From Bolinopsis microptera (taxonomy: Eukaryota; Ctenophora; Tentaculata; Lobata; Bolinopsidae), in the NCBI RefSeq assembly GCF_026151205.1, contig NC_087079.1, forward strand, positions 18,305,287-18,369,286: 64,000 bases of DNA. Reading direction: 5' to 3'. The position numbers and the translations under genes are program-made. Below the pieces are notes generated by a model, which was not told the origin of the DNA, made no database searches, and worked only from the letters and a program-made list of their open reading frames with translations. Shown in pieces: positions 6,736 through 62,241 of the stretch (position 1 is the first letter of the stretch; each line of letters begins with the position of its first letter).

Positions 6736-6737
6736 CT

Positions 6738-7024
6738 AATTAGTTAATTGACGATGGTATGAAACCAAATTGATATTGGGGTACTGGAAGTCAAAATCTC
6801 GAAGAAAATTGGAAAATCAAATTGTCCCAAAGTTTGTCCTTGTCGATCATACGTTGTATGACCCACCGCGCACGAGTGCACGGCTCCCCCTGTAGCGTTG
6901 AAACTCTACAGCGAAACGACAATGGGGGTCACGACGAGATACAAGTCTGTCCCATTTTCAGTTTTTGAAGATGAAATTTCCAGGACCGAAATTTTACAGT
7001 TTTGACCGAATTTCTGACCTGCAA
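6738..7024 (+). repeat. Fragment of the 366-bp satellite, left of the large insertion
   Basis: 6738-6830 and 6948-7024 match the satellite unit that fills 18391-28477; the right part ends at CTGACCTGCAA. Between them 6836-6945 is foreign sequence (GACCCACCGCGCACGAGTGC and following). The unit is broken at 7024 and resumes at 18391 after the 11.4-kb element. Confidence 0.85.
7021..7024. repeat. Target-site duplication GCAA, left copy
   Basis: GCAA precedes the element end CACAGGAGGAG and is repeated right after the opposite end at 18391-18394. Removing one copy and the element restores the intact satellite string GACCTGCAACCAATTA. Confidence 0.75.
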
Positions 7025-7050
7025 CACAGGAGGAGCTAAGTGCAAAGAAA

Positions 7051-7282
7051 CTGTCACTAACTGCTACAAACTGCCACTAACTGCCACAAACTGCCACTAA
7101 CTGCCACTAACTGCCACTAACTGCCACAAACTGCCACTAACTGCTACAAACTGCCACTAACTGCCACTAACTGCCACTAACTGCTACAATCGCGCCCACG
7201 CATTTGCGCGCGACAGTAGCAGTTACTAGTTAGTGGCAGTTAGTGGCAGTTAGTGGCAGTTTGTAGCAGTTAGTGGCAGTTT
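7051..7282. repeat. Left foldback array (inverted minisatellite)
   Basis: About a dozen 10-11 bp units (CTGCCACTAA, CTGCCACAAA, CTGCTACAAA) run forward. A GC-rich centre (CAATCGCGCCCACGCATTTG) follows, then the same units in reverse complement (TTAGTGGCAG). The whole can fold into one long hairpin. Confidence 0.9.
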
Positions 7283-8396
7283 TTATGCGCGTCGGGATTT
7301 CAAATCGAGCGCTCATCAATTTTTATAATAGCAAGTCCGCAGTTCACATAGCCATGTGCCTACGCGTACTGCGTGACGCGCTTGTTTCACGGCGGTCGCG
7401 CGCTACTGCAAGCGAGAGGGCTCTGGTTAGAGCAAAGTCCGCAGCGTTTAGAGCTGCATTGTTGATTATTGGGCAGCGCTCAGCCTGTCATTCCGCCGAA
7501 TCTCTATTCATTAATGAACATGATAGCCTGAGGTTCCCAGGTAACATTGTTGACTAAACCAGACTGTGCACGTTGTGGCTGTGCTAAATGTCAAATGTTG
7601 CAGATAGCGTATACGTTTTTTAAACTATGTTTTGATTTGATTTGACTTGACTTAACTTGTAGTAAACGGTCGGCCGTTTTACAACACGGCAATATGACTG
7701 CTTGTGTTAGTTTCGACACTAAATATTTTGTTCTCGCTGCATGAGTATATAAATGTTTGATATGAATTATGAAATGAGAAGTCGTGTATTATGTAATATA
7801 ATAGATTCAGAAGACTCGTGAATGTGCAAGTATATGAATATTTATATTATATTTATATCATATCCATTGAATTATATTCATGGGACCAGCAAAAGCTCAC
7901 AGCTAACAGCATTTATTTTTATTTATGATAAGATGATAAGTTCATTATGAGCAATTTTTAATTTAGTTCGTATCAGGCTAGAACTCTAGTAATCGAGTTT
8001 TATTTGTTAATAAAAAAAACTTCTCTACGGTATTAGGAAAACTGCTGTGATAGACCGGAGCGCAGCAAAAAATTTAATAGCTTGTCCTGGACCGAATTCT
8101 ACCAAATATTTACTACAAGTATGACACTTTTCGGATTTAGAAGGGTGCTGTCCAGACTATGAGTATGTTAACGGTGCGCGGTGATATCATTGAAGCTAAA
8201 GTCGGCACTACAAATTAAAGTAAATTATAATTTCGTCCATTAGACAGAAGAGTACCATGTCAGGAATTGGAATAGCTGTTGTTGTTGTTGTTGATGATGG
8301 CAACTGATAATACTTCACCAAAAACGAACGACTTATATACCACATTTCAATCGTAATCATTTATTTCATTGAGCAATCAATATTATTCTACTACTT
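7283..8396. other. Interior of the element, no gene recognised
   Basis: An open frame from 7273 to 7557 (plus) covers 94 codons, Arg/Ala-rich, with no motif I recognise. It starts inside the foldback array and may be chance. The rest is AT-rich with a short GTT repeat near 8280. Confidence 0.35.
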
Positions 8397-9855
8397 GGAA
8401 GGAGTTTCTAGATGTCATGGACACGTGGTGTGACGGCGCAACAAAGAAGAAGATACTTTAATTTCGCAGTACACGTTCTACCGAGAGAAAAGAGGCTTAT
8501 TCTCTACTGACGCTGCCTCAAGTTTTAGCCAAGATTCTGACGGTCTAGTCTCTTGGTGGAGCAACTTCGGTTGAGAGGTACCCGAACTACAGAGTTTTCC
8601 AATGAAAGCGCTGTCGCAATCGACATCAGCCTCACCCTGTGAGACGAATTGGAGCTTGTACGACTGGGTGATAAACAAAAAAAGAAACCGCCCCACAGTT
8701 AACAAGCAGCGAGACCTTATTATTATTTATGTTATTATATTTATGTTATTATATTTATGTTAACACAAGTTTGCGTCTTATGAAAAATTCACGAATTAAG
8801 GAGCAATAATTTTATTATTATTTGCTTATTGCTATACTAGTGACTTGTTTTTATTCATTGTTGTTTATTTACTGTCTAATTCCGACAACATAGTTTTATC
8901 TCATTGTATCCATTTAAAGTTAAAAACGGACATTAAAATGAACGCTCGGAGCCCGGAGGCATTCAAACGTTTACGTACGGGCGTTGACTTGAACGTAAAT
9001 GGGCAGACTATTTAACTTTAAGGTTAAACGGATATTAATATATGTACGCTATGCCCTAGCTGGGGCCTCTTCTCAGACTCTCGAGCGTTCAATTTGAATT
9101 GGTGTCGAATTAAAATTAAAGTTAATTAAAGTTCAATAAGATAAACTTATCATTGCTGGTTTGATTTTGGAACCTTCTCTAGACCTAGTAATTTTGGATT
9201 CGTAAGTTATGTGCGAGAATAGCTTCCCAGTCCCACGTCAAAGTGATTTATAGATTATCCTTATTTTTAAGGGAATCGTTAGGTATTCGTATACTTATAG
9301 TATAGTTTTATTATTACACGTACGTGACCAATATTATTCCCCGCGCGATGTTATTACAAATTAGATTCTCTTTCACTTTGATCAGTTTCTTTCAAAAACA
9401 GATTCGCGCGTCAAATATATTTAGTTTGCGCGCTTTTGGTACTCCCAAAAGTACGTCAAAATGCAATTCTGTGAATTGCATTATTATAAATTTATAGTCA
9501 TAGGTAATAGGCTCCATGTCATTGTCCACAGGACTGGTCACCGTTAACCTTGTTTAACTTAAACTGGTCGGAAAACGCGGATGTGTTATGAAAAATAATG
9601 TTTATCGCTTTGCCATTCGGCCGGTAGAATTAGATCAGAAAATCATGCGGATACCGATAAGACGATAAAACAGTTATCGAATTTTATACCTTTACCTAAG
9701 GCTAATGGTGATGCAACGCTAATGGAATACCTTGATCAGAAAGAAGTAAGAACTTTTGCTTTTGGCAAATCTAACAACCACGGAAATTTTCAGCGACATC
9801 AACGCTAAAATCGGAAACGATTTTCACTTCAAGATCTACTTAGAGAAAGTAATGA
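8397..9855. repeat. Large inverted repeat, left arm
   Basis: Reverse complement of 13752-16213, minus the extra 1-kb copy found there. Both arms contain a 75-codon open frame (8478-8705 minus; 15903-16130 plus) with KLQFVSQGEADVDCDSAFIG. Its conservation follows from the repeat and is not evidence of a gene. Confidence 0.9.
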
Positions 9856-9917
9856 CATGTCGGTGGGGATCGCGACGTGATACAAGTAGTATAGTATGGT
9901 ATTTACCTTAAGTTATG

Positions 9918-11558
9918 GAACTGCTGAAGGTAATTCGTTAGAAGGCTTACATCTCGATCCCGGGGTGCGTATAGAAGAAAAACATTATTTATAGTCTTGG
10001 ACACTTATAACTAGCTGATAGCACAGACTACGTTTTTGTTAGGAAGAATTAGGGTCCGCAAAAGATGACAGTCAGGATAAGTTCTATGTCTGTCATGTAC
10101 AATATATTATTATAGGAGAAACACTATTGTATAGAGAATATGCTATAGAAAGATATCATGTACATAAAGGTAAGTATACTTATTGGTAGAATTGTGGAAC
10201 ACAACAAGAAAATTGAGAATAATCTTGTGCGAGGGTAGGGACCCAGATGGCGTTTCTAACCCAAATAAACTTTAAGGAGACTTCTCATCAGTAGCCGCAC
10301 CTCCTTAATCGGTTTCTGAACTGGAATTATATGGGCTTCCAGACGGCCAGACCGAGTATTACCATCCCATCCTTCTAGAGTTCATCACAAGTAGCACCCA
10401 CCTTGAAGATCTTTGACACCCAGACACACCCCATTGGCGAACAAACTTTGGATATAATCTTACATGCTCCCGAAGGAATCCCTGGTTTATGGTCTTTCTC
10501 CTCGTCACTAGCACTTTCGCTAGAGTCACCAGCCCTTTCACTGGAGTCATCAGCCCAATCATTGAAGTGTACAGAAGTACAGTTGTGTGTTAGATCAATT
10601 TCTTGGTCTAACATTTAATACAAATTCGCACGTGTGCACTCAATGCAGTTCTGGTCACGTACCGGTAACTTTAGTCTTTAACTTAAACTGTTTGGAAAAC
10701 AGATGTGTACATGAAATATATTAATGTTTATCAGCCGGTAAAGTATTTGGAGGGAAAAATCTCACATACACCAGACGAAAAATTTGAATGATTGGAGTTA
10801 CTTTTACTTATCATGTCTAAATATTAATAAGGTTTACTGGCTCAGTTTTTGAATGTATGGGAATGAAAATAATTTCACTCGAATTTCGACAGATCTTATA
10901 CTAACTTGACTGTACTTGTAGCAAACCGCATGACGTTTATTGATCATCAACTTTCAATAGTTCAAAGGTATTTTCATCCATAATTAATGATGACACATAT
11001 ATCTGTTAATGCTCGATACTTCATTCCGTGTACTATACAGTGTACACAATTACGTAGAGATGCTGTACTGATAGACATTGCGGATGCTGACCATTATACG
11101 ATAATGAGACTAACATATTTTTTCATTAAATACCTAAATTATTAGCATTTAAAATATTTTCTGCTGACACGTGCATGCACGCGCGCTAAAACTCTTCTAA
11201 CTCATCTAGAACAAGTAAAATTGCGGGAAACGATGGAGTGTCGACGTGTTAATATTTCAAATCTGATTAACGTTCCTTTACCTTATGTTCCGAACGTTAA
11301 ATCTTTTAGCGAACGCGTTCACAAACTATTTTTAGTGAACGTTCCGTACGTTCACTACAACTAAGCCGGGTGTCTATCAAAGTAAATACTCATACTTTGA
11401 CAATGACATCATATTTGCGGACCCTAATTCTTCCTAACAAAAACGTAGTCTGTGCTATCAGCTAGTTATAAGTGTCCAAGACTATAAATAATGTTTTTCT
11501 TCTATCCGCACCCCGGGATCGAGATGTAAGCCTTCTAACGAATTACCTTCAGCAGTTC
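9918..11558. mobile_element. Nested element with inverted ends of about 145 bp
   Basis: 9918-10062 (starting GAACTGCTGAAGGTAATTCG) is the reverse complement of 11414-11558. The 1.35 kb between them has no recognised transposase; short open frames near 10359-10618 overlap on both strands and look like chance. No clear target duplication was found. It lies in the loop of the larger inverted repeat. Confidence 0.65.
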
Positions 11559-11766
11559 GGTTCACGTACTGTAGTGCGACACGTACTCTAGTGCTACATG
11601 TACCCTAGTGCGAAACCTCCAAGATCGACACTGTCGCAGTAGAGTACGCTACCTGGATCGTAGTGCGACACGTACCCTAGTGCGACAGAGAAATTTCAAG
11701 GCCGACACTGTCGCACTACAGTGCGCTACCTGGACTGTAGTGCGACACGAACTAAAGTGCGACAAA
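11559..11766. repeat. GTGCGACACGTAC minisatellite
   Basis: Degenerate repeats of TAGTGCGACACGTACCCTAG interleaved with AGTAGAGTACGCTACCTGGA. Similar repeats recur at 13621-13742, so the pair brackets the transposase-remnant region. Confidence 0.75.
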
Positions 11767-11975
11767 ACACTTTACGCAATAAAAATTTGACTTTCCATTT
11801 TTAAGTTTTAATGACAAGAGTGTAGTCGTGTATGAGTAAATATGGGGTTAAATATAAAATCAAAGATTACAATCCACGAAGATTAGGTCCACGAAGATTA
11901 GGTCCACGAAGGCAATAGCACCGATCATCTTAAAGTACTTCCGTACTGCTGAGTTCTCTGCGTTGTATTCCGGGA

Positions 11976-12302
11976 CTAGGTCATGTTGCTGCATCTTCCT
12001 CCAAAGTGCTTGCTTGTGGTGGAAGAAGCATCCTCTCTTGGTAGTATACAGGTTGTCTCCACAGCGTTTATCAGGGCTCTCTCGTAGTCACTCATGACAG
12101 ATTGAGGGTCGACTCCAAAAGCAAGGAGCTCATCCAAGAGGGCTTCATAATGTCCAACAGCATCAGCAATTAGGTGTTTCGTAGGGAGGTCAGTATCGGA
12201 AGCTTTCCGTTTCATATGCTGCTTTGCTGTGTGGACAGAGTTTGCTGCAGGAGTAGGAGGGTGGGAATAAGTCTTCGTACTGGTCACAGTAGTGTCGTTC
12301 AT
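11976..12302 (-). pseudogene. MULE-like transposase remnant
   Basis: A 108-codon open frame with LLDELLAFGVDPQSVMSDYE followed by RALINAVETT. MULE (Mutator-like) transposases carry a D-[FY]-E-x-A-x-x-x-A-(F/V) stretch after 'P..v..D' at the second catalytic aspartate, which this resembles. The expected C-x-H histidine segment is absent; after NAVETT the frame becomes Ser/Thr-rich (PREDASSTTSKHFG). It looks like a decayed piece, embedded in the large element. The assignment rests on motif memory. Confidence 0.4.
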
Positions 12303-12648
12303 CAGACTGAGACGTCCGGAGCAGATCTTCCCAGTGGATCGCCAGTAGGTCCTGTCGTCGCGCTTCTAATTATCCAGGCAGTAGCGGTATCCGTCGTGGA
12401 TAACGTTTCTTGAACCAGTAGTGCGTCCAGGAATGGAGGTGATTGAAGAATACATGTTGATGTTGTTCGATGCTTTGGTAGAATCATCGTGACTTTATAT
12501 ATGGCCCAAGAATATGAACTTGTTATCCAAATCGGAGATATACCTTCATACGATACGTGTGATAGGAATGAGGATCATATGCTGCTTAAGAGTTACCCGG
12601 TGGATCACACACTGCATACGTGGCTTGAACTGACCCGAAGGAATTGTG

Positions 12649-13454
12649 CTAAGATGAGAAGTATGTATCATACGTAATTTTCAAAGTATCGTACAAGTAC
12701 GTACTTTTAAAATACTGCGGAAAAGTACGCAGATACAATAATGTAGTGCACGTGTCGGCAGCTAGATACAGCTAGACTGATGAAGTTTGACAGCGGTATC
12801 GCCCTGAGAGAACTCCAGCATTACAGGCTAAATGTGGACAGCGAGGGGCTCAATTTATACACCGAAGTGGATTCGTTGCAGAATCTACCAAATCCTATGT
12901 TGTATTGGAGATACTATAGCCCACAGAGTTATGAGGTTCTCCATTTGATCGCTAGAAAAGTTTTTAGTGTTCTGACTTCTTCCTCAGTTTGTGAACAAAA
13001 TTTTAGAGACATGGAGTATATATCTACTGCAGTAGAAGACTACGCACTAAGCCTGAGAGATTCAACAAATTGATCTACATCTACTCTAATGCAAAACTGA
13101 AACGTTAAAGCTGAAAGTAAATTTGATCTGTTGAAATGATGATGCTAGAAAGTTCATTGTTTTTTGTTTTGATGAAATGATGAAGCTTATTAAACTTTCT
13201 TTGTTATCTGCGATTGAGTGTTTCTATTATCTCCATGAATATGGCTTTCAAAAGCATCATGACAATGAAATTTCAATCGTGGAAGTCGGGAGTTTCCAAT
13301 AAATAAAACGTCGGATCTAAAAAACGTTACATCGCGCCTGTGAAAATAAGTTTGAAAATTTTTTGAATCGTACACTGAGGTATCATACGTACTTTTCAAA
13401 ATAAAGTACAAGTACGTACTTTTCGCCCGGTATCATACATACTTCTCATCTTAG
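12649..13454 (+). mobile_element. Non-autonomous hAT transposon with 8-bp target duplication
   Basis: The ends are CTAAGATGAGAAGTATG and its reverse complement CATACTTCTCATCTTAG. Flanking copies of GAATTGTG (12641-12648 and 13455-13462) are an 8-bp duplication as expected for hAT. Subterminal ATCATACGTA and AAGTACGTACTTTT motifs occur at both sides in opposite orientation. The interior encodes a hAT dimerisation-domain remnant. The element is nested inside the 11.4-kb insertion. Confidence 0.85.
12780..13073 (+). pseudogene. hAT transposase C-terminal (dimerisation) domain remnant
   Basis: A 97-codon frame with NPMLYWRYYSPQSYEVLHLI and VLTSSSVCEQNF. hAT transposases end in a dimerisation domain of the form 'P..yW......yp.L..lA...lsi..sS..vER.FS', which this follows, with CEQNF in place of the usual ER.FS. 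The N-terminal catalytic part is missing, so the product cannot be an active transposase. It sits inside the 806-bp element with hAT-type ends and probably derives from its parent. Confidence 0.7.
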
Positions 13455-13620
13455 GAATTGTGATCAGTGGATCACTTCGAAACACGTGATGTGAACCGAC
13501 GAATCGTATTCGCAAGATCAATTCGAAATAAGTGACGTGAACCGACCCGACGAATCACTTACCTAATGGTCCATAAGAAGGATAGGATGTGACCTGAGCT
13601 TGGAAATAAGTCAGGATATT

Positions 13621-13742
13621 TTGTCGCAGTAGAGTACGCTACCTGGATGGTAGTGCGACACGTACCCTAGTGCGACAGAGGGTGTTTTTGTCGGACTTCG
13701 CACTAGAGTACGTGTCGCATTACAGTACGTGTCGCACTACAG
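13621..13742. repeat. GTGCGACACGTAC minisatellite, second block
   Basis: Same repeat motifs as 11559-11766, including GTCGCAGTAGAGTACGCTAC and both orientations of the GTGCGAC core. Confidence 0.75.
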
Positions 13743-13751
13743 TAAGATTAC

Positions 13752-16213
13752 CATTTCTCTAAGTAGATCTTGAAGTGAAAATCGTTTCCGATTTTACTTT
13801 TAGCGTTGATGTCGCTGAAAATTTCCGTGGTTTTTAGATTTGCCAAAAGCAAAAGTTCTTACTTCTTTCTGATCAAGGTATTCCATTAGCGTTGCATCAC
13901 CATTAGCCTTAGGTAAAGGTATAAAATTCGATAACTGTTTTATCGTCTTATCGGTATCCGCATGATTTTCTGATCTAATTCTACCGGCCGAATGGCAAAG
14001 CGATAAACATTATTTTTCATAACACATCCGCGTTTTCCAACCAGTTTAAGTTAAACAAGGTTAACGGTGACCAGTCCTGTGGACAATGACATGGAGCCTA
14101 TTACCTATGACTATAAATTTATAATAATGCAATTCACAGAATTGCATTTTGACGTACTTTTGGGAGTACCAAAAGCGCGCAAACTAAATATATTTGACGC
14201 GCGAATCTGTTTTTGAAAGAAACTGATCAAAGTGAAAGAGAATCTAATTTGTAATAACATCGCGCGGGGAATAATATTGGTCACGTACGTGTAATAATAA
14301 AACTATACTATACCTAAGTATACGAATACCTAACGATTCCCTTAAAAATAAGGATAATCTATAAATCACTTTGACGTGGGACTGGGAAGCTATTCTCGCA
14401 CATAACTTACGAATCCAAAATTACTAGGTCTAGAGAAGGTTCCAAAATCAAACCAGCAATGATAAGTTTATCTTATTGAACTTTAATTAACTTTAATTTT
14501 GAATCGACACCAATTCAAATTGAACGCTCGAGAGTCTGAGAAGAGGCCCCAGCTAGGGCATAGCGTACATATATTAATATCCGTTTAACCTTAAAGTTAA
14601 ATAGTCTGCCCATTTACGTTCAAGTCAACGCCCGTACGTAAACGTTTGAATGCCTCCGGGCTCCGAGCGTTCATTTTAATGTCCGTTTTTAACTTTAAAT
14701 GGATACAATGAGATAAAACTATGTTGTCGGAATTAGACAGTAAATAAACAATAATGAATAAAAATAAGTCACTAGTATAGCAATAAGCAAATAATAATAA
14801 AATTATTGCTCCTTAATTCGTGAATTTTCCGTGGTTTTTAGATTTGCCAAAAGCAAAAGTTCTTACTTCTTTCTGATCAAGGTATTCCATTAGCGTTGCA
14901 TCACCATTAGCCTTAGGTAAAGGTATAAAATTCGATAACTGTTTTATCGTCTTATCGGTATCCGCATGATTTTCTGATCTAATTCTACCGGCCGAATGGC
15001 AAAGCGATAAACATTATTTTTCATAACACATCCGCGTTTTCCAACCAGTTTAAGTTAAACAAGGTTAACGGTGACCAGTCCTGTGGACAATGACATGGAG
15101 CCTATTACCTATGACTACAAATTTATAATAATGCAATTCACATAATTGCATTTTGACGTACTTTTGGGAGTACCAAAAGCGCGCAAACTAAATATATTTG
15201 ACGCGCGAATCTGTTTTTGAAAGAAACTGATTAAAGTGAAAGAGAATCTAATTTGTAATAACATCGCGCGGGGAATAATATTGGTCACGTACGTGTAATA
15301 ATAAAACTATACTATACCTAAGTATACGAATACCTAACGATTCCCTTAAAAATAAGGATAATCTATAAATCACTTTGACGTGGGACTGGGAAGCTATTCT
15401 CGCACATAACTTACGAATCCAAAATTACTAGGTCTAGAGAAGGTTCCAAAATCAAACCAGCAATGATAAGTTTATCTTATTGAACTTTAATTAACTTTAA
15501 TTTTGAATCGACACCAATTCAAATTGAACGCTCGAGAGTCTGAGAAGAGGCCCCAGCTAGGGCATAGCGTACATATATTAATATCCGTTTAACCTTAAAG
15601 TTAAATAGTCTGCCCATTTACGTTCAAGTCAACGCCCGTACGTAAACGTTTGAATGCCTCCGGGCTCCGAGCGTTCATTTTAATGTCCGTTTTTAACTTT
15701 AAATGGATACAATGAGATAAAACTATGTTGTCGGAATTAGACAGTAAATAAACAATAATGAATAAAAATAAGTCACTAGTATAGCAATAAGCAAATAATA
15801 ATAAAATTATTGCTCCTTAATTCGTGAATTTTTCATAAGACGCAAACTTGTGTTAACATAAATATAATAACATAAATAATAATATTAATAAGGTCTCGCT
15901 GCTTGTTAACTGTGAGGCGGTTTCTTTTTTTGTTTATCACCCAGTCGTACAAGCTCCAATTCGTCTCACAGGGTGAGGCTGATGTCGATTGCGACAGCGC
16001 TTTCATTGGAAAACTCTGTAGTTCGGGTACCTCTCAACCGAAGTTGCTCCACCAAGAGACTGGACCGTCAGAATCTTGGCTAAAACTTGAGGCAGCGTCA
16101 GTAGAGAATAAGCCTCTTGTCTCTCGGTAGAACGTGTACTGCGAAATTAAAGTATCTTCTTCTTTGTTGCGCCGTCACACCACGTGTCCATGACATCTAG
16201 AAACTCCTTCCAG
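13752..16213. repeat. Large inverted repeat, right arm, with internal 1-kb tandem duplication
   Basis: Reverse complement of 8397-9855. A segment of 1004 bp is present twice in tandem (about 13820-14823 and 14824-15827, both starting near TTTCCGTGGTTTTTAG), while the left arm has it once. The copies differ at only a few bases. Confidence 0.9.
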
Positions 16214-18114
16214 ACATCCTGATTCGTGTGTTTATCATATCCCTGATATATAAGCCGGGTGAACACAAAACCCTACTGAATGTAGGGGGGAATGGAGCTC
16301 GAGCCACCTTTTGTTGGCAAGACTAATCATATCGCTTTTATAGTTCAATTGCGAAAAGCAAAATTTGCTAACTTTAAGGTGAACAGATAATATTTGTAAT
16401 AAATTACACCGATGAAACCAACAGGAATCTTAAGACTATTGTCTGAAAATCTAAGCAAGACTATTATCGGCTCGAGAATTGAGCATAAATAGTCGACTTC
16501 TATCCAGAAACCTAGGAGAATCAGGGGACATCCTGTTGTCAATTTATGGGAGGTCGACTTTACTGCTTTGATCACAGACGTCCGATACAGCAGCGGAAGC
16601 GCAAGATCTGCTGATGAGCAATTCCGTCGGTCTGTACCTAATCAATGACGGCTAAACTAGGTAAATTTGCGCATGAACCTTTCAATATTATAGATTATAC
16701 TTTTCCGAGCCACCGAATTGAGCCTGTATTGTTCTATGGCTGAGACCCATTGGATATCGGTTAGTAGCTGTCTGAAAACTATAAGCGTATTAATGGCTGT
16801 TACAGTAGGCCCTCAACAGTTGAATACCATCCCCAAGCCAACAGTGATGATTAGTCGAAGCATAATGAAACTAGCCAAGTATTTAGCGAGACACAATGAT
16901 GAACTGGCCGATCAAGCACTTTTTGGGATTCCCAGCATAAAATAACAACACCTGTTTCCAAACAGTTAAAGTTAAAGATTATAAACTTACCGTTGCCTAA
17001 TTCTGAGAACATGGAACGCACACGTGCCAATATGATTTTACGCGCGAATTACCCAGAATTAACTGAAACTGAATGCTGAAAGAGAATCTTATCGCGTCGC
17101 GCGGGGAATAATTTTGGTCACGTACATCATTTTGTGTTCCCTTTTAAATACAATTACCAGTGCAGAGAGTAGTTTCAGAATCAGAAACGCAAATTCAACT
17201 TGCAAAGATTAATTTACCTGGGTAACCTCGCTCAGGCTTTTGTATTTATTAAGTTAAACACATTGATTTAACATTGAACATATTATGGCGATTAAAAATA
17301 TGCCTATAGCAGATAGGGCGGAATGACAGGTTCAGCAACGCCCAGGAATTACAAGCAGCAAATTCTGCTACTGCTAGTGCTATCAGTATCACGGAGAATC
17401 GAAGCAAATATTATAGTGGTACCGTGGCATGTCCATTCTGGGTCAGCGTTGTATATACTTATATATGTTGCATGGATAAGTCCCTGCTTGCTGTTGGCGT
17501 TGCTGCGGCGAGGCTGGCTGGAATAATTGTCGGAGAACTCTTTGGCTTCGTACTCTCTTCACTTCTTTCTCCGCACAAAACTGTTCAATCCGTGGGAGGC
17601 CCTGTTATTCAAATAAAGTTCTGAACCCTTAATCAAGCGTTTAGTTCTAAAACTTTGGTAATGGAAATTGTAGTTTTGTAGCTTTTCTCATAACTATCGT
17701 CCTATCGAACTGATGATCAATAAACATCACGCGGTTTGCTACAATCAAGTTAGTATAAGGAGTCGTTTACATATCAGCAGAGGGGTCTTCCAAATTGCAA
17801 ATGATTACGATTGACCATATAATATTGTAATTTTGGCACAATAGCACAATACTAATAGCGATACCCGGATTTAACATTTAAACAATTTGTAATCGTATTG
17901 CCATGCAGTGTTTGTGTAACTGTAGTACTAGTTGGTAATCGCTTTTCTTGTCAAAAAGTTAATATTTGTTTCCTTCGATAGTAAATTATTTTGTCCCAAA
18001 TTCATATATTTTCTAATAATACAAAATTGTTTTTAGACCAATTATACAATGTCAATAAGTCATGTGGCATGTAAGGCGCCAAAGACAAATTGCTAAAAGG
18101 CTCGGCGCAACTGC
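16214..18114. other. Interior of the element, no gene recognised; diverged inverted copies
   Basis: 17700-17760 is a diverged reverse complement of about 10898-10965 (shared ATGATCAATAAAC, GCGGTTTGCTACAA, AAGTTAGTATAAG). 17030-17130 resembles part of the large inverted repeat (GCGCGGGGAATAAT, GGTCACGTAC). The element has therefore been built from repeated internal inversions or duplications. No supported coding sequence. Confidence 0.5.
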
Positions 18115-18372
18115 AGAAAACTGCTACTAACTGCCACAAACTGCCACTAACTGCTACAAACTGCCACTAACTGCTACTAACTGCCACTAACTGCTGCAAA
18201 CTGCGCGCGCAGTGCGTGGGCGCGATTGTAGCAGTTAGTGGCAGTTAGTGGCAGTTAGTGGCAGTTTGTAGCAGTTAGTGGCAGTTTGTAACAGTTAGTG
18301 GCAGTTTGTGGCAGTTAGTGGCAGTTTGTGGCAGTTAGTGGCAGTTTGTAGCAGTTAGTGACAGTTTCTTTG
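18115..18372. repeat. Right foldback array (inverted minisatellite)
   Basis: Forward CTGCTACTAA/CTGCCACTAA units, a GC-rich centre with GTGCGTGGGCGCGATTG (reverse complement of the left array's centre), then inverted TTAGTGGCAG units. It mirrors 7051-7282. Confidence 0.9.
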
Positions 18373-18390
18373 CACTTTGCTCCTCCTGTG

Positions 18391-21300
18391 GCAACCAATT
18401 AACCAATCAACTATAAATGGCATATGACACGATTGAGGTGCTGGAAGTTTGATTCCGGTCGGAGGAAGCTCACAGCAGAAAGCTTAACAAGACAAAAATT
18501 TGTATTTTCCAAATGCTGTCCCATTTTCAGATATGAAAATTTCTGAACACAAATTTGACAGATTGGATGAAATTTATGCCCAGAAACCTATTAATCAGTT
18601 AATTGATGATGGTATGAAACCAAATTGGGGTACTGGAAGTCAAAATCTCGAAGAAAATAGGAAAATCATATTGTCCCATAGTCTGTCCCATTTTCAGTTT
18701 TTGAAGATGAAATTTCCAGGACCGAAATTTTACAGTTTTGACCGAATTTCTGACCTGCAACCAATTAGTCAATCAACTATAGATGGCATATGACACGATT
18801 GAGGTGCTGGAAGTTTGATTCCGGTCGGAGGAAGCTCACAGCAGAAAGCTTAACAAGACAAAAATTTGTATTTTCCAAATGCTGTCCCATTTTCAGATAT
18901 GAAAATTTCTGAACACAAATTTGACAGATTGGATGAAATTTAAGCCCAGAAACCTATTAATCAGTTAATTGATGATGATTTGAAACCAAATTGGGGTACT
19001 GAAAGTCAAAATCTGGAAGAAAATTGGAAAATCATATTGTCCCATAGTCTGTCCCATTTTCAGTTTTTGAAGATGAAATTTCCAGGACCGAAATTTTACA
19101 GTTTTGACCGAATTTCTGACCTGCAACCAATTAGCCAATCAACTATAAATGGCATATGACACGATTGAGGTGCTGGAAGTTTGATTCCGGTCGGAGGAAG
19201 CTCACAGCAGAAAGCTTAACAAGACGAAAATTTGTATTTTCCAAATGCTGTCCCATTTTCAGATATGAAAATTTCTGAACACAAATTTGACAGATTGGAT
19301 GAAATTTATGCCCAGAAACCTATTAATCAGTTAATTGATGATGATTTGAAACCAAATTGGGGTACTGGAAGTCAAAATATCGAAGAAAATAGGAAAATCA
19401 TATTGTCCCATAATCTGTCCCATTTTCAGTTTTTGAAGATGAAATTTCCAGGACCGAAATTTTACAGTTTTGACCGAATTTCTGACCTGCAACCAATTAG
19501 TCAATCAACTATAGATGGCATATGACACGATTGAGGTGCCGGAAGTTTGATTCCGGTCGGAGGAAGCTCACAGCAGAAAGCTTAACAAGACGAAAATTTG
19601 TATTTTCCAAATGCTGTCCCATTTTCAGATATGAAAATTTCTGAACACAAATTTGACAGATTTGATAAACTTTTTGCCCAGAAACCAATTAGTCAGTTAA
19701 TTGATGATGGTATGAAACCAAATTGGGGTACTGGAAGTCAAAATCTCGAAGAAAATAGGAAAATCATATTGTCCCATAGTCTGTCCCATTTTCAGTTTTT
19801 GAAGATGAAATTTCCAGGACCGAAATTTTACAGTTTTGACCGAATTTCTGACCTGCAACTAATTAGCCAATCAACTATAGATGGCATATGACACGATTGA
19901 GGTCCTGGAAGTTTGATTCCGGTCGGAGGAAGCTCACAGCAGAAAGCTTAACAAGACGAAAATTTGTATTTTCCAAATGCTGTCCCATTTTCAGATATGA
20001 AAATTTCTGAACACAAATTTGACAGATTTGATGAAATTTTTGCCCAGAAACCAATTAGCCAGTTAATTGATGATGGTATGAAACCAAATTGGGGTACTGG
20101 AAGTCAAAATCTGGAAGAAAATTGGAAAATCATATTGTCCCATAGTCTGTCCCATTTTCAGTTTTTGAAGATGAAATTTCCAGGACCGAAATTTTACAGT
20201 TTTGACCGAATTTCTGACCTGCAACTAATTAGTAAATCAACTATAGATGGCATATGACACGATTGAGGTGCTGGAAGTTTGATTCCGGTCGGAGGAAGCT
20301 CACAGCAGAAAGCTTAACAAGACGAAAATTTGTATTTTCCAAATGCTGTCCCATTTTCAGATATGAAAATTTCTAAACACAAATTTGACAGATTTGATGA
20401 AATTTTTGCCCAGAAACCAATTAGCCAGTTAATTGATGATGGTATGAAACCAAATTGGGGTACTGGAAGTCAAAATCTGGAAGAAAATTGGAAAATCATA
20501 TTGTCCCATAATCTGTCCCATTTTCAGTTTTTGAAGATGAAATTTCCAGGACCGAAATTTTACAGTTTTGACCGAATTTCTGACCTGCAACCAATTAGTC
20601 AATCAACTATAGTTGGCATATGACACGATTGTGGTGCTAGAAGTTTGATTCCGGTCGGAGGAAGCTCACAGCAGAAAGCTTAACAAGACGAAAATTTGTA
20701 TTTTCCAAATGCTGTCCCATTTTCAGATATGAAAATTTCTGAACACAAATTTGACAGATTTGATGAAATTTTTGCCCAGAAACCAATTAGCCAGTTAATT
20801 GATGATGGTATGAAACCAAATTGGGGTACTGGAAGTCAAAATCTGGAAGAAAATTGGAAAATCATATTGTCCCATAATCTGTCCCATTTTCAGTTTTTGA
20901 AGATGAAATTTCCAGGACCGAAATTTTACAGTTTTGACCGAATTTCTGACCTGCAACCAATTAGTCAATCAACTATAGTTGGCATATGACACGATTGTGG
21001 TGCTAGAAGTTTGATTCCGGTCGGAGGAAGCTCACAGCAGAAAGCTTAACAAGACAAAAATTTGTAATTTCCAAATGCTGTCCCATTTTCAGATATGAAA
21101 ATTTCTGAACACAAATTTGACAGATTGGATGAAATTTATGCCCAGAAAACTATTAATCAGTTAATTGATGATGATTTGAAACCAAATTGGGGTACTGGAA
21201 GTCAAAATCTCGAAGAAAATTTGAAAATCATACTGTCCCATAGTCTGTCCCATTTTCAGTTTTTGAAGATGAAATTTCCAGGACCGAAATTTTACAGTTT

Positions 21301-24300
21301 TGACCGAATTTCTGACCTGCAACCAATTAGCCAATCAACTATAAATGGCATATGACACGATTGAGGTGCTGGAAGTTTGATTCCGGTCGGAGGAAGCTCA
21401 CAGCAGAAAGCTTAACAAGACGAAAATTTGTATTTTCCAAATGCTGTCCCATTTTCAGATATGAAAATTTCTGAACACAAATTTGACAGATTGGATGAAA
21501 TTTATGCCCAGAAACCTATTAATCAGTTAATTGATGATGGTATGAAACCAAATTGGGGTACTGGAAGTCAAAATCTCGAAGAAAATAGGAAAATCATATT
21601 GTCCCATAGTCTGTCCCATTTTCAGTTTTTGAAGATGAAATTTCCAGGACCGAAATTTTACAGTTTTGACCGAATTTCTGACCTGCAACCAATTAGTCAA
21701 TCAACTATAGATGGCATATGACACGATTGAGGTGCTGGAAGTTTGATTCCGGTCGGAGGAAGCTCACAGCAGAAAGCTTAACAAGACGAAAATTTGTATT
21801 TTCCAAATGCTGTCCCATTTTCAGATATGAAAATTTCTGAACACACATTTGACAGATTTGATAAACTTTTTGCCCAGAAACCAATTAGTCAGTTAATTGA
21901 TGATGGTATGAAACCAAATTGGGGTACTGGAAGTCAAAATCTCGAAGAAAATAGGAAAATCATATTGTCCCATAGTCTGTCCCATTTTCAGTTTTTGAAG
22001 ATGAAATTTCCAGGACCGAAATTTTACAGTTTTGACCGAATTTCTGACCTGCAACTAATTAGCCAATCAACTATAGATGGCATATGACACGATTGAGGTC
22101 CTGGAAGTTTGATTCCGGTCGGAGGAAGCTCACAGCAGAAAGCTTAACAAGACGAAAATTTGTATTTTCCAAATGCTGTCCCATTTTCAGATATGAAAAT
22201 TTCTGAACACAAATTTGACAGATTTGATGAAATTTTTGCCCAGAAACCAATTAGCCAGTTAATTGATGATGGTATGAAACCAAATTGGGGTACTGGAAGT
22301 CAAAATCTGGAAGAAAATTGGAAAATCATATTGTCCCATAGTCTGTCCCATTTTCAGTTTTTGAAGATGAAATTTCCAGGACCGAAATTTTACAGTTTTG
22401 ACCGAATTTCTGACCTGCAACCAATTAGTCAATCAACTATAGTTGGCATATGACACGATTGTGGTGCTAGAAGTTTGATTCCGGTCGGAGGAAGCTCACA
22501 GCAGAAAGCTTAACAAGACAAAAATTTGTATTTTCCAAATGCTGTCCCATTTTCAGATATGAAAATTTCTGAACACAAATTTGACAGATTTGATGAAATT
22601 TTTGCCCAGAAACCAATTAGCCAGTTAATTGATGATGGTATGAAACCAAATTGGGGTACTGGAAGTCAAAATCTGGAAGAAAATTGGAAAATCATATTGT
22701 CCCATAATCTGTCCCATTTTCAGTTTTTGAAGATGAAATTTCCAGGACCGAAATTTTACAGTTTTGACCGAATTTCTGACCTGCAACCAATTAGTCAATC
22801 AACTATAGTTGGCATATGACACGATTGTGGTGCTAGAAGTTTGATTCCGGTCGGAGGAAGCTCACAGCAGAAAGCTTAACAAGACAAAAATTTGTATTTT
22901 CCAAATGCTGTCCCATTTTCAGATATGAAAATTTCTGAACACAAATTTGACAGATTGGATGAAATTTAAGCCCAGAAACCTATTAATCAGTTAATTGATG
23001 ATGATTTGAAACCAAATTGGGGTACTGAAAGTCAAAATCTGGAAGAAAATTGGAAAATCATATTGTCCCATAGTCTGTCCCATTTTCAGTTTTTGAAGAT
23101 GAAATTTCCAGGACCGAAATTTTACAGTTTTGACCGAATTTCTGACCTGCAACCAATTAGCCAATCAACTATAAATGGCATATGACACGATTGAGGTGCT
23201 GGAAGTTTGATTCCGGTCGGAGGAAGCTCACAGCAGAAAGCTTAACAAGACGAAAATTTGTATTTTCCAAATGCTGTCCCATTTTCAGATATGAAAATTT
23301 CTGAACACAAATTTGACAGATTGGATGAAATTTATGCCCAGAAACCTATTAATCAGTTAATTGATGATGATTTGAAACCAAATTGGGGTACTGGAAGTCA
23401 AAATATCGAAGAAAATAGGAAAATCATATTGTCCCATAATCTGTCCCATTTTCAGTTTTTGAAGATGAAATTTCCAGGACCGAAATTTTACAGTTTTGAC
23501 CGAATTTCTGACCTGCAACCAATTAGTCAATCAACTATAGATGGCATATGACACGATTGAGGTGCCGGAAGTTTGATTCCGGTCGGAGGAAGCTCACAGC
23601 AGAAAGCTTAACAAGACGAAAATTTGTATTTTCCAAATACTGTCCCATTTTCAGATATGAAAATTTCTGAACACACATTTGACAGATTTGATAAACTTTT
23701 TGCCCAGAAACCAATTAGTCAGTTAATTGATGATGGTATGAAACCAAATTGGGGTACTGGAAGTCAAAATCTCGAAGAAAATAGGAAAATCATATTGTCC
23801 CATAGTCTGTCCCATTTTCAGTTTTTGAAGATGAAATTTCCAGGACCGAAATTTTACAGTTTTGACCGAATTTCTGACCTGCAACTAATTAGCCAATCAA
23901 CTATAGATGGCATATGACACGATTGAGGTCCTGGAAGTTTGATTCCGGTCGGAGGAAGCTCACAGCAGAAAGCTTAACAAGACGAAAATTTGTATTTTCC
24001 AAATGCTGTCCCATTTTCAGATATGAAAATTTCTGAACACAAATTTGACAGATTTGATGAAATTTTTGCCCAGAAACCAATTAGCCAGTTAATTGATGAT
24101 GGTATGAAACCAAATTGGGGTACTGGAAGTCAAAATCTGGAAGAAAATTGGAAAATCATATTGTCCCATAGTCTGTCCCATTTTCAGTTTTTGAAGATGA
24201 AATTTCCAGGACCGAAATTTTACAGTTTTGACCGAATTTCTGACCTGCAACTAATTAGTAAATCAACTATAGATGGCATATGACACGATTGAGGTGCTGG

Positions 24301-27300
24301 AAGTTTGATTCCGGTCGGAGGAAGCTCACAGCAGAAAGCTTAACAAGACGAAAATTTGTATTTTCCAAATGCTGTCCCATTTTCAGATATGAAAATTTCT
24401 GAACACAAATTTGACAGATTTGATGAAATTTTTGCCCAGAAACCAATTAGCCAGTTAATTGATGATGGTATGAAACCAAATTGGGGTACTGGAAGTCAAA
24501 ATCTGGAAGAAAATTGGAAAATCATATTGTCCCATAATCTGTCCCATTTTCAGTTTTTGAAGATGAAATTTCCAGGACCGAAATTTTACAGTTTTGACCG
24601 AATTTCTGACCTGCAACCAATTAGTCAATCAACTATAGTTGGCATATGACACGATTGTGGTGCTAGAAGTTTGATTCCGGTCGGAGGAAGCTCACAGCAG
24701 AAAGCTTAACAAGACGAAAATTTGTATTTTCCAAATGCTGTCCCATTTTCAGATATGAAAATTTCTGAACACAAATTTGACAGATTTGATGAAATTTATG
24801 CCCAGAAAACTATTAATCAGTTAATTGATGATGATTTGAAATCAAATTGGGGTACTGGAAGTCAAAATCTCGAAGAAAATTTGAAAATCATACTGTCCCA
24901 TAGTCTGTCCCATTTTCAGTTTTTGAAGATGAAATTTCCAGGACCGAAATTTTACAGTTTTGACCGAATTTCTGACCTGCAACCAATTAGCCAATCAACT
25001 ATAAATGGCATATGACACGATTGAGGTGCTGGAAGTTTGATTCCGGTCGGAGGAAGCTCACAGCAGAAAGCTTAACAAGACGAAAATTTGTATTTTCCAA
25101 ATGCTGTCCCATTTTCAGATATGAAAATTTCTGAACACAAATTTGACAGATTGGATGAAATTTATGCCCAGAAACCTATTAATCAGTTAATTGATGATGG
25201 TATGAAACCAAATTGGGGTACTGGAAGTCAAAATCTGGAAGAAAATAGGAAAATCATATTGTCCCATAGTCTGTCCCATTTTCAGTTTTTGAAGATGAAA
25301 TTTCCAGGACCGAAATTTTACAGTTTTGACCGAATTTCTGACCTGCAACCAATTAGTCAATCAACTATAGATGGCATATGACACGATTGAGGTGCTGGAA
25401 GTTTGATTCCGGTCGGAGGAAGCTCACAGCAGAAAGCTTAACAAGACGAAAATTTGTATTTTCCAAATGCTGTCCCATTTTCAGATATGAAAATTTCTGA
25501 ACACACATTTGACAGATTTGATAATCTTTTTGCCCAGAAACCAATTAGTCAGTTAATTGATGATGGTATGAAACCAAATTGGGGTACTGGAAGTCAAAAT
25601 CTCGAAGAAAATAGGAAAATCATATTGTCCCATAGTCTGTCCCATTTTCAGTTTTTGAAGATGAAATTTCCAGGACCGAAATTTTACAGTTTTGACCGAA
25701 TTTCTGACCTGCAACTAATTAGCCAATCAACTATAGATGGCATATGACACGATTGAGGTCCTGGAAGTTTGATTCCGGTCGGAGGAAGCTCACAGCAGAA
25801 AGCTTAACAAGACGAAAATTTGTATTTTCCAAATGCTGTCCCATTTTCAGATATGAAAATTTCTGAACACAAATTTGACAGATTTGATGAAATTTTTGCC
25901 CAGAAACCAATTAGCCAGTTAATTGATGATGGTATGAAACCAAATTGGGGTACTGGAAGTCAAAATCTGGAAGAAAATTGGAAAATCATATTGTCCCATA
26001 GTCTGTCCCATTTTCAGTTTTTGAAGATGAAATTTCCAGGACCGAAATTTTACAGTTTTGACCGAATTTCTGACCTGCAACCAATTAGTCAATCAACTAT
26101 AGTTGGCATATGACACGATTGTGGTGCTAGAAGTTTGATTCCGGTCGGAGGAAGCTCACAGCAGAAAGCTTAACAAGACAAAAATTTGTATTTTCCAAAT
26201 GCTGTCCCATTTTCAGATATGAAAATTTCTGAACACAAATTTGACAGATTTGATGAAATTTTTGCCCAGAAACCAATTAGCCAGTTAATTGATGATGGTA
26301 TGAAACCAAATTGGGGTACTGGAAGTCAAAATCTGGAAGAAAATTGGAAAATCATATTGTCCCATAATCTGTCCCATTTTCAGTTTTTGAAGATGAAATT
26401 TCCAGGACCGAAATTTTACAGTTTTGACCGAATTTCTGACCTGCAACCAATTAGTCAATCAACTATAGTTGGCATATGACACGATTGTGGTGCTAGAAGT
26501 TTGATTCCGGTCGGAGGAAGCTCACAGCAGAAAGCTTAACAAGACGAAAATTTGTATTTTCCAAATGCTGTCCCATTTTCAGATATGAAAATTTCTGAAC
26601 ACAAATTTGACAGATTGGATGAAATTTATGCCCAGAAAACTATTAATCAGTTAATTGATGATGATTTGAAACCAAATTGGGGTACTGGAAGTCAAAATCT
26701 CGAAGAAAATTTGAAAATCATACTGTCCCATAGTCTGTCCCATTTTCAGTTTTTGAAGATGAAATTTCCAGGACCGAAATTTTACAGTTTTGACCGAATT
26801 TCTGACCTGCAACCAATTAGCCAATCAACTATAAATGGCATATGACACGATTGAGGTGCTGGAAGTTTGATTCCGGTCGGAGGAAGCTCACAGCAGAAAG
26901 CTTAACAAGACGAAAATTTGTATTTTCCAAATGCTGTCCCATTTTCAGATATGAAAATTTCTGAACACAAATTTGACAGATTGGATGAAATTTATGCCCA
27001 GAAACCTATTAATCAGTTAATTGATGATGGTATGAAACCAAATTGGGGTACTGGAAGTCAAAATCTCGAAGAAAATAGGAAAATCATATTGTCCCATAGT
27101 CTGTCCCATTTTCAGTTTTTGAAGATGAAATTTCCAGGACCGAAATTTTACAGTTTTGACCGAATTTCTGACCTGCAACCAATTAGTCAATCAACTATAG
27201 ATGGCATATGACACGATTGAGGTGCTGGAAGTTTGATTCCGGTCGGAGGAAGCTCACAGCAGAAAGCTTAACAAGACGAAAATTTGTATTTTCCAAATGC

Positions 27301-28477
27301 TGTCCCATTTTCAGATATGAAAATTTCTGAACACACATTTGACAGATTTGATAAACTTTTTGCCCAGAAACCAATTAGTCAGTTAATTGATGATGGTATG
27401 AAACCAAATTGGGGTACTGGAAGTCAAAATCTCGAAGAAAATAGGAAAATCATATTGTCCCATAGTCTGTCCCATTTTCAGTTTTTGAAGATGAAATTTC
27501 CAGGACCGAAATTTTACAGTTTTGACCGAATTTCTGAGCTGCAACTAATTAGCCAATCAACTATAGATGGCATATGACACGATTGAGGTCCTGGAAGTTT
27601 GATTCCGGTCGGAGGAAGCTCACAGCAGAAAGCTTAACAAGACGAAAATTTGTATTTTCCAAATGCTGTCCCATTTTCAGATATGAAAATTTCTGAACAC
27701 AAATTTGACAGATTTGATGAAATTTTTGCCCAGAAACCAATTAGCCAGTTAATTGATGATGGTATGAAACCAAATTGGGGTACTGGAAGTCAAAATCTGG
27801 AAGAAAATTGGAAAATCATATTGTCCCATAGTCTGTCCCATTTTCAGTTTTTGAAGATGAAATTTCCAGGACCGAAATTTTATAGTTTTTACCGAATTTC
27901 TGACCTGCAACCAATTAGTAAATCAACTATAGATGGCATATGACACGATTGAGGTGCTGGAAGTTTGATTCCGGTCGGAGGAAGCTCACAGCAGAAAGCT
28001 TAACAAGACGAAAATTTGTATTTTCCAAATGCTGTCCCATTTTCAGATATGAAAATTTCTGAACACAAATTTGACAGATTTGATGAAATTTTTGCCCAGA
28101 AACCAATTAGCCAGTTAATTGATGATGGTATGAAACCAAATTGGGGTACTGGAAGTCAAAATCTGGAAGAAAATTGGAAAATCATATTGTCCCATAGTCT
28201 GTCCCATTTTCAGTTTTTGAAGATGAAATTTCCAGGACCGAAATTTTACAGTTTTGACCGAATTTCTGACCTGCAACTAATTAGTCAATCAACTATAAAT
28301 GGCATATGACACGATTGAGGTGCTGGAAGTTTGATTCCGGTCGGAGGAAGCTCACAGCAGAAAGCTTAACAAGACGAAAATTTGTATTTTCCAAATGCTG
28401 TCCCATTTTCAGATATGAAAATTTCTGAACACAAATTTGACAGATTGGATGAAATTTATGCCCAGAAACCAATAATA
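18391..28477 (+). repeat. 366-bp dimeric satellite, about 27.5 copies, with higher-order pattern
   Basis: Every unit is 366 bp, a multiple of three. Each consists of two diverged halves (about 167 and 199 bp), both starting CCCATTTTCAG. Nearly all units keep a frame of 97 codons from a TTG, or 86 codons from the first ATG (MKISEHKFDR...), ending at ATA TGA. Variants recur in order: units with an in-frame TAA start at 18866 and 22892, exactly 11 units apart, each followed by the same series. A five-unit series repeats at 25088 and 26918. The array is cut at 28477, where ATATATTTAAATT follows. Whether the frame is translated is unknown; many variant positions change amino acids. Confidence 0.97.
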
Positions 28478-36366: not shown

Positions 36367-36478
36367 GACAAGTTAGGTTATCATGACAAGTTAAGCACCA
36401 GTTCGACGCAATTAATTATGAATTTATTAAGCACAAACTAACAGTGAGTAGTAACGTGTTAGTAACACGTTGTTTAGT

Positions 36479-60491: not shown

Positions 60492-62241
<1,750 letters not shown>

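What the first reader, a model, noticed from the sequence alone, without database searches (positions are those of the whole stretch)
7021..18394. One 11.4-kb foldback-type transposon sits inside a satellite unit, proven by its empty site
The ends at 7025 and 18390 are inverted copies (CACAGGAGGAGC...), each leading into its own hairpin minisatellite. GCAA is duplicated outside. The left and right flanks are the two halves of one satellite unit, so the pre-insertion sequence can be rebuilt exactly. The element has double foldback ends, a 1.46-kb internal inverted repeat and nested elements, but no intact transposase. Ends made of palindromic arrays resemble Drosophila FB elements, yet the 4-bp duplication and the CAC start suggest another superfamily. 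This may be an undescribed family of giant non-autonomous elements.
Basis: partly seen in the sequence, partly recalled or inferred. Interest (0 to 1): 0.85.

Follow-up and report, generated by a model that had tools for sequence, protein, structure and literature searches.

The report
Giant non-coding hairpin-ended jumping gene family
The 11.4-kb stretch is one copy of a family of very large DNA transposons in which no working transposase was found; they end in hairpin-forming repeats and have jumped many times across this genome, sometimes carrying other DNA along.

Summary
Window 7025-18390 is a complete element with inverted CACAGGAGG ends and a GCAA duplication; joining its flanks restores an ungapped 366-bp satellite unit. 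The window's own genome (264.7 Mb, unnamed eukaryote) holds 401 such ends within 2 mismatches, against 0 for the control. From the listed places I paired convergent ends into 35 elements of 9.2-24.4 kb. All 35 have a perfect 4-bp duplication (three in homopolymer runs); the one wrong pairing tried had none. Insertion sites are symmetric: pyrimidine before, purine after the duplication. Sixteen copies were read in full. Copies with different duplications share nested insertions at one internal site, so loaded giants moved. No intact transposase was seen, though few frames were put to Pfam and a spliced gene is not excluded. Each end resembles a short hairpin MITE without its inner terminus; real 144-539-bp MITEs with the same ends exist. 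Inner inverted arms are homogenised, and the centre is flipped in some copies. Best reading: a trans-mobilised, non-autonomous DNA transposon with 4-bp duplications. Chapaev/CMC fits the ends, but no partner was found; membership is unproven. Most novel reading: a composite 'macrotransposon' of two MITEs around about 11 kb of passenger DNA.

The parts
7025..18390 (.). complete giant element, window copy (11,366 bp)
7021..7024 (.). target site duplication GCAA, left
18391..18394 (.). target site duplication GCAA, right
7025..7047 (+). left terminal inverted repeat CACAGGAGGAGCTAAGTGCAAAG
18368..18390 (-). right terminal inverted repeat CACAGGAGGAGCAAAGTGCAAAG (reverse strand)
7048..7285 (.). 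left hairpin minisatellite (approximate limits): forward 10-bp units, GC-rich loop, reverse units; lacks the inner MITE tail
18109..18367 (.). right hairpin minisatellite (approximate limits), same layout
7343..7434 (.). 92-bp repeat inserted in this copy's left subterminal region, between two AAGTCCGCAG; of 41 rows only the window's own spans it, 39 match only beyond it and one matches only the repeat
8228..8229 (.). junction where fuller copies such as E1 and E6 carry about 2.8 kb that this copy lacks
8396..9853 (+). inner inverted arm, left
14818..16212 (-). inner inverted arm, right
13747..14828 (-). extra copy of the right inner arm, tandem duplication in this copy (99.4%)
12649..13454 (.). 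nested hAT-type element, 8-bp duplications GAATTGTG at 12641-12648 and 13455-13462; shared with copy E2, empty site in E6
   Evidence: sharing with E2 from the 6.6-kb alignment
12747..13070 (+). hAT C-terminal dimerisation remnant inside the nested element (PF05699, E 5.8e-4, 20 bits, under the cut-off of 21.4)
6944..7024 (.). left part of the interrupted satellite unit
18395..28473 (.). 366-bp satellite array continuing the interrupted unit

Best explanation
The element is a non-autonomous, giant terminal-inverted-repeat DNA transposon. A transposase made elsewhere in the genome recognises the 23-bp ends and, by inference, the arrays of 10-bp motifs (AACTGCCACT/AACTGCTACA, both orientations) behind them. 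It cuts the element out and inserts it with a 4-bp staggered cut at a symmetric target. The interior does no work for transposition and is free to grow, shrink, invert and pick up other elements. Shown: paired ends, 4-bp duplications, symmetric target preference, high identity between copies, movement after cargo loading, arms more alike within a lineage than between lineages, flipped centres, and no intact transposase seen in the 16 copies read. Inferred: cut-and-paste by a DDE transposase, the 10-bp motifs as its binding sites, and hairpins as a by-product of clustered inverted sites rather than a replication signal.
For: 401 ends within 2 mismatches against 0 for the reversed control. 35 of 35 giants paired by position have perfect 4-bp duplications; the one wrong pairing tried has none. 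7 of 10 short elements with the same ends also have them. Target symmetry over 42 sites: pyrimidine just left of the duplication in 36 of 42, purine just right in 35 of 42. Six of 11 copies scanned have no open frame of 150 codons. Window copy and E2 agree at 6586 of 6600 aligned bases and share a nested hAT but have different duplications, GCAA and TACA. E14 and E15 share a nested gene-bearing element but have duplications GTTA and TTCA.
Against: No autonomous element with these ends was found, so the trans-acting transposase is inferred. Three of 35 duplications are homopolymers (GGGG, CCCC, AAAA) and weak evidence by themselves. Three of 10 short elements lack a perfect duplication (two agree at 3 of 4 bases, one at 2 of 4). 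The target motif was noticed after the fact, and three giants sit in the same repeat, so the 42 sites are not fully independent. Only 16 of 35 copies were read in full, 11 frames from them were put to Pfam, and a gene split into short exons would have been missed. Contiguity in raw reads could not be checked.
Confidence: 0.86

Rival explanations
1. The mobilising transposase belongs to the Chapaev branch of the CMC group, so the family is a non-autonomous Chapaev family.
For: [quoted passage not shown] The duplications here are 4 bp in 35 of 35 giants and abut CAC and GTG exactly. Subterminal repeats bound by a partner protein are known in the related CACTA elements (PMC2613891 passages). RAG1-like transposase loci, relatives of this group, exist in this genome.
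Against: No transposase was found with these ends. None of the 41 matches to a RAG1-like protein lies inside one of the 35 giants or close to a listed end (only 100 of 401 ends were listed). Target preference here (Y, 4 bp, R) is unlike the A, TWA, T of Chapaev3 (PMC4079192).
Confidence: 0.45
2. Composite macrotransposon: two hairpin MITEs in inverted orientation on either side of unrelated DNA lost their inner ends, and the outer ends now move the whole block.
For: 0 of 28 giant ends keep the inner MITE tail while 27 of 28 keep the MITE loop. A 539-bp element shows two back-to-back hairpins between one pair of ends. The interior holds remnants that look like other elements and no intact transposase was seen. 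Precedent: the Ising TE, DNA moved between foldback elements in Drosophila (PMC6431247 passages).
Against: The usual direction, MITEs arising as internal deletions of larger elements (recalled), gives much the same end structures. The loop was recognised in only 6 of the 10 MITEs. The copies read share one core, so there was at most one founding event per core. No donor locus for the core was searched for.
Confidence: 0.35
3. FB/Rehavkus-type MULE foldback element.
For: Long inverted ends made of tandem repeats, variation in unit number, no coding capacity seen; most foldback elements are placed in Mutator (PMC4079207 passages).
Against: Duplication is 4 bp in 35 of 35, against 8-10 bp for Tetris and 9 bp for MULEs (recalled).
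Confidence: 0.04
4. Segmental duplication or assembly artefact rather than transposition.
For: High identity between copies; repeats are hard to assemble; raw reads not available here.
Against: 35 of 35 exact 4-bp duplications at different places, a restored satellite unit, and a symmetric target motif.
Confidence: 0.02

Closest known systems
Tetris / DAIBAM of Drosophila virilis (PMC4079207, abstract start and passages seen)
   Same: Non-coding foldback element with tandem repeats in its inverted ends, variable middle, no autonomous copy found, and a MITE (DAIBAM) that shares its termini.
   Different: Tetris has 8-10-bp duplications and three structurally complete copies; this family has 4-bp duplications and at least 35 paired giants, and each end is built like a hairpin MITE without its inner tail.
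Galileo, P superfamily (PMC3688188, abstract seen)
   Same: Long repetitive inverted ends resembling Foldback; [quoted passage not shown] Same working idea for the 10-bp motif here.
   Different: Galileo has a known P-type transposase; none is found here, and the duplication differs (P-type recalled as 7-8 bp).
Chapaev transposons, CMC group (PMC4079192, PMC4411706, PMC12730594, passages seen)
   Same: CAC...GTG termini, 3-4-bp duplications.
   Different: No transposase found here; giant size; hairpin ends; target preference differs from that reported for Chapaev3.
CACTA/EnSpm with subterminal repeats, e.g. 20.5-kb Tgmt of soybean (PMC2613891, passages seen)
   Same: CAC start, giant size, clustered subterminal motifs as binding sites.
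   Different: 3-bp duplication; codes for its proteins. Search of this genome with PF02992 gave no match, but its 14 control genomes gave none either.
Composite elements: KolobokP (PMC9587614, abstract and passages seen), Ising TE of Drosophila (PMC6431247, passages seen)
   Same: Two mobile ends flanking an interior.
   Different: KolobokP has direct terminal repeats with their own inverted ends, TTAA sites (as a Kolobok) and a coding interior; Ising TE spans hundreds of kb between foldback elements.

Membership tests
Chapaev (CMC) | termini 5'-CAC...GTG-3' | tested here: met
   The copies were found by a pattern that begins with CAC, so this is partly by construction; what was tested is that the 4-bp duplication abuts CAC and GTG exactly, in 35 of 35 giants
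Chapaev (CMC) | 3-4-bp target duplication | tested here: met
   4 bp in 35 of 35 giants, 7 of 10 MITEs
Chapaev (CMC) | DDE transposase with C(2)C and H(4)H motifs in an autonomous relative sharing the ends | tested here: inconclusive
   none seen in 16 fully read copies; RAG1-like loci exist but not linked to these ends
CACTA/EnSpm | 3-bp target duplication | tested here: not met
   4 bp in 35 of 35
CACTA/EnSpm | clustered short subterminal motifs in both orientations | tested here: met
   10-bp units, forward and reverse, behind the ends of 14 giants
Foldback/MULE (FB, Tetris, Rehavkus) | 8-10-bp target duplication | tested here: not met
   Tetris value from PMC4079207
Foldback/MULE (FB, Tetris, Rehavkus) | long inverted ends with internal tandem repeats that fold back | tested here: met
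hAT | 8-bp target duplication | tested here: not met
   4 bp; the nested 806-bp element does have 8 bp
Transib | 5-bp target duplication | tested here: not met
   4 bp in 35 of 35; the 5-bp value is recalled, one CCAGG example in PMC4411706
Academ (AcademX) | 3-4-bp duplication | tested here: met
   AcademX value from PMC10045372 passage
Academ (AcademX) | transposase plus nuclease domain | not tested
   no search made
Non-autonomous MITE-like family | ends shared with short elements, no coding capacity, duplications of equal length | tested here: met
   coding capacity judged from long open frames only

The most novel reading that the evidence does not exclude
The giants are eukaryotic composite 'macrotransposons' built from two hairpin MITEs that lost their inner ends. 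They mobilise about 11 kb or more of passenger DNA, including other transposons and a host gene fragment, and have amplified to dozens of copies. Inverted inner arms homogenise by gene conversion and flip the interior. On this reading MITE ends alone are enough to create a self-propagating, cargo-bearing giant transposon.
Probability: 0.33. Interest if true: 0.75.

Novelty: new variant of a known kind. Interest (0 to 1): 0.6.

Why it matters
Non-autonomous cut-and-paste elements are usually short, and transposition is commonly thought to fall off with length (recalled). Here elements of 9-24 kb, with no intact transposase seen in the 16 read, sit at 35 or more sites with exact duplications. 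They still moved after acquiring nested DNA, in one pair an element with a fragment of a host receptor-like gene. If the MITE-built composite reading holds, it gives a natural route from the smallest class of transposon to a giant cargo carrier. The paired copies, MITE forms and flipped interiors in one genome make that route testable.

Tried and rejected
Autonomous partner. Looked for in 16 fully read giants (none seen). PF05699 in the genome: 150 of 365 candidates scored, one listed match inside one of the 35 giants, a remnant nested in E13. PF02992: no match, control genomes also silent, so uninformative. PF12940: two loci; in the fetched loci of about 4 kb there was no match to the loop at 2 mismatches and one chance-like 12-base match to the end. 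RAG1-like protein: 41 matches, none in a known giant or close to a listed end. Of 15 exact L-type ends that one search left without a mate (MITE end aside), seven were read for about 1 kb: L101, L103 and L106 continue as giants do (89-97%); L100, L102, L104 and L105 have other DNA behind the end, that of L104 partly shared with an insert in E4. L102 and L104 were followed to 8.9 and 6.9 kb: no right end found, and frames that by eye are LINE-like or unidentified. The other eight, and the 1-2-mismatch ends that one search did not list, were not read for this.

Organism. A PF15009 search meant to help name it gave nothing anywhere, controls included. Left unnamed.

By-eye leads not used: inner arms carry a pattern that looks like a frameshifted hAT C-terminus, but Pfam did not support it; the frame at window 11979-12365 (minus) looks MULE-like, Pfam gave nothing. 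A 157-159-aa frame shared by E9, E11 and E12 has no family (best E 0.03, under cut-off).

Papers. Searches listed no paper that, by title and abstract start, describes this family. Repbase Reports are not in the library and the organism is unknown, so I make no claim that it is unpublished.

Full report
Observation. Window 7025-18390 begins and ends with inverted copies of CACAGGAGGAGC(T/A)AAGTGCAAAG, flanked by GCAA on both sides. Joining the flanks with one GCAA removed gives a sequence that aligns without gaps through the junction to units of the 366-bp satellite: 27 of 55 alignments span it, best 375 of 377 identical. Only about 81 bp of good satellite remain on the left (6944-7024), with diverged pieces further out. 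Each end contains a minisatellite of 10-bp units in forward then reverse orientation around a GC-rich loop, and folds as a strong hairpin.

Family in the genome. The window lies at C8:18305287-18369286 of a 264.65-Mb, 232-contig genome. The 23-bp end with up to 2 mismatches occurs 206 times forward and 195 reverse, against 0 and 0 for the reversed control (the first 100 of 401 places were listed). Exact L-type ends number 55; exact R-type ends with the following AAACTGT number 39. From the places listed I paired convergent ends 9-25 kb apart by position, before reading their flanks. This gave 35 elements of 9,205-24,404 bp, median 12,879, total 498,101 bp; it is a lower bound. All 35 have a perfect 4-bp duplication: the window copy, ten, two and 22. 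Three of them (GGGG, CCCC, AAAA) are homopolymers and weak alone. One alternative partner (C4:9525270) was tried and had none. Two giants on C10 lie 175 bp apart, each with its own duplication.

Short relatives. The ten close convergent pairs in the list (144-539 bp) were fetched. Seven have a perfect 4-bp duplication, two agree at 3 of 4 bases, one at 2 of 4.

Target site. Over the 42 sites with perfect duplications (35 giants, 7 MITEs; 3 MITEs dropped), the base left of the duplication is a pyrimidine in 36 and the base right of it a purine in 35. C is commonest at -3 and G at +6, giving a twofold symmetric motif. Binomial P against one half is 1.4e-6 and 7.5e-6. The motif was noticed after the fact, and three giants share one target repeat. 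Such symmetry is expected of a staggered cut by a transposase and not of assembly error.

Anatomy. Sixteen giants were read in full (the window copy and E1-E15). Ten, including the window copy, are subfamily 1. Six, E3, E9, E11, E12, E14 and E15, are subfamily 2, with T-type ends on both sides and roughly 90-96% identity to the first. Compared with a compact copy such as E6, the window copy lacks about 2.8 kb at its left (junction 8228/8229), carries an extra tandem copy of the right inner arm, and holds two nested insertions. One is an 806-bp hAT-type element at 12649-13454 with 8-bp duplication GAATTGTG, inside the stretch shared with E2 and absent from E6. The other is a 92-bp repeat at 7343-7434: of 41 rows only the window's own spans it, 39 match only the sequence beyond it, and one is the repeat itself beside another giant.

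Identity between copies. Over a 2.9-kb right-hand region, the best blastn pieces of subfamily-1 copies are 97.5-98.7% identical to the window copy; window copy and E2 agree at 6586 of 6600 aligned bases over 6.6 kb.

Inner arms. Fuller copies have long inverted arms of about 0.93, 0.32 and 1.46 kb. In subfamily 1 the left and right outer arms of a copy differ by about 3-4%, but each is 98.5% or more alike between copies. In the two subfamily-2 copies then in hand (E3, E9) the two outer arms are 98.8 and 99.1% alike and about 96% like those of subfamily 1. The inner arms of subfamily 1 are 98.4-100% alike whichever side they come from. This is the pattern of homogenisation between arms within a lineage. 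Taking L and R subterminal sequences as reference, the centre runs forward in 10 of the 12 copies that have it and is inverted in E3 and E12; E8 and E10 lack it. In E14 and E15 the main piece of the centre is inverted and smaller pieces are not all so. Recombination between the inverted arms would explain this.

Coding capacity. Six of the 11 copies scanned have no open frame of 150 codons. Long frames in the others are simple-repeat frames, reverse transcriptase-like frames judged by eye, an MFS transporter frame in E3 (PF07690, E 6.7e-15), receptor-like frames in E14 and E15 (PF00057, E 2.9e-6 for E14's second frame; none for the first), and an unassigned 157-159-aa frame in E9, E11 and E12. 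Eleven frames from the giants were put to Pfam. No intact transposase was seen, but a gene in short exons would have been missed.

Movement after loading. The window copy (GCAA) and E2 (TACA) share the nested hAT. E14 (GTTA) and E15 (TTCA) share a nested element with matching junctions; in E14 it is about 5.2 kb, has an 8-bp duplication TTTACGTT (read by eye) and its own minisatellite ends, and carries part of a host LDLa/receptor-like gene family. Different outer duplications with a shared inner insertion mean that the loaded element moved.

Ends are like MITEs without inner tails. In 28 ends of 14 giants the MITE loop is found in 27 (E2's left end is broken by a nested 11-kb element) and the inner MITE terminus in none. 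All ten MITEs have that terminus, by selection, and the loop was recognised in 6 of 10. A 539-bp MITE holds two hairpins back to back between one pair of ends, a miniature of the giant layout.

Mechanism. Best supported: trans-mobilisation by a transposase that reads the 23-bp end, makes a 4-bp stagger at a symmetric target, and probably binds the arrayed 10-bp motif. Galileo is the tested precedent for several transposase-binding sites in repetitive inverted ends (PMC3688188, abstract), and Spm/En TNPA binds subterminal repeats (PMC2613891, passages). The hairpins may be only a by-product of having sites in both orientations.

Classification. Ends and duplication agree with Chapaev (PMC4079192, passages); AcademX also makes 3-4-bp duplications (PMC10045372, passage). 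FB/MULE, hAT, EnSpm and Transib are not met on duplication length. RAG1-like transposase loci occur in this genome, but none lies in a known giant or close to a listed end. I therefore file it as a non-autonomous TIR family, possibly Chapaev-like, with membership unproven. Repbase places non-autonomous elements by duplication length and the first 11 terminal bases (PMC4455052, passage); that comparison could not be made here.

Origin. Two histories fit: decay of an autonomous giant into giants and MITEs, or a composite made by two MITEs that captured the DNA between them. The missing inner tails, the double-hairpin MITE and the passenger-like interior favour the second a little; the shared core of the copies read and the usual direction of MITE origin favour the first. 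A known parallel is the Drosophila Ising TE, in which DNA between foldback elements moves (PMC6431247, passages).

Noticed in passing
window 34564-43680: A 4.56-kb block is tandemly duplicated at 99.89% identity; each copy holds a 246-aa frame that by eye recalls a Tc1/mariner-type transposase (no clear Pfam match). A 474-bp repeat (33270-34597) and inverted pieces sit at its edge.
   Followed up: partly
window 47585-52139: A 28-bp minisatellite of about 163 copies at 98%.
   Followed up: no
window 60495-61205: 711 bp of uninterrupted GA dinucleotide.
   Followed up: no
window 44172-45673: Minisatellite of about 32 copies of a 49-bp unit with higher-order periods of 92 and 141 bp.
   Followed up: no
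L011-L012 (C1, copy E2, element positions about 93-11226): An 11.1-kb element with 2.5-kb inverted ends (97.7%, beginning TAGTGTGGTTGG) is inserted inside the left hairpin of copy E2: another giant long-inverted-repeat element.
   Followed up: no
L014-L015 (copy E3, element positions 10192-11304): A 371-codon uninterrupted frame of an MFS transporter lies in a 5.8-kb insert of copy E3: possible captured gene.
   Followed up: partly
L092-L095 (copies E14, E15): A nested element with its own minisatellite ends and 8-bp duplication carries part of an LDLa/receptor-like host gene; relatives at C12:1.72-1.84 Mb and C3:20.2 Mb may include the source, and copies at C11:7982040 and C1:11693707 lie within about 9 kb of further L-type ends.
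   Followed up: partly
L090, L091 (C2:19700416, C3:4783511): Two loci with long open frames of RAG1/Transib-like transposase (PF12940, E 1.2e-11 and 7.6e-9); many of the further matches are short or hold stop codons.
   Followed up: partly
L057, L070, L078 and window 7343-7434: Three of 35 giants (two judged from their flanks by eye) are inserted in the same short repeat that is also inserted in the window copy; the 219-bp query holding it had 3128 first-look candidates.
   Followed up: partly
L026 flank (C3:7537535, copy E9): Copy E9 is inserted into the last bases of what looks like another copy's end (left flank CTCCTCCTGT), a self-insertion.
   Followed up: no
C8:18382627 to about 18414000, outside the window: An R-type end and an L-subterminal match in convergent order about 31 kb apart suggest another, larger copy just beyond the window.
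   Followed up: no
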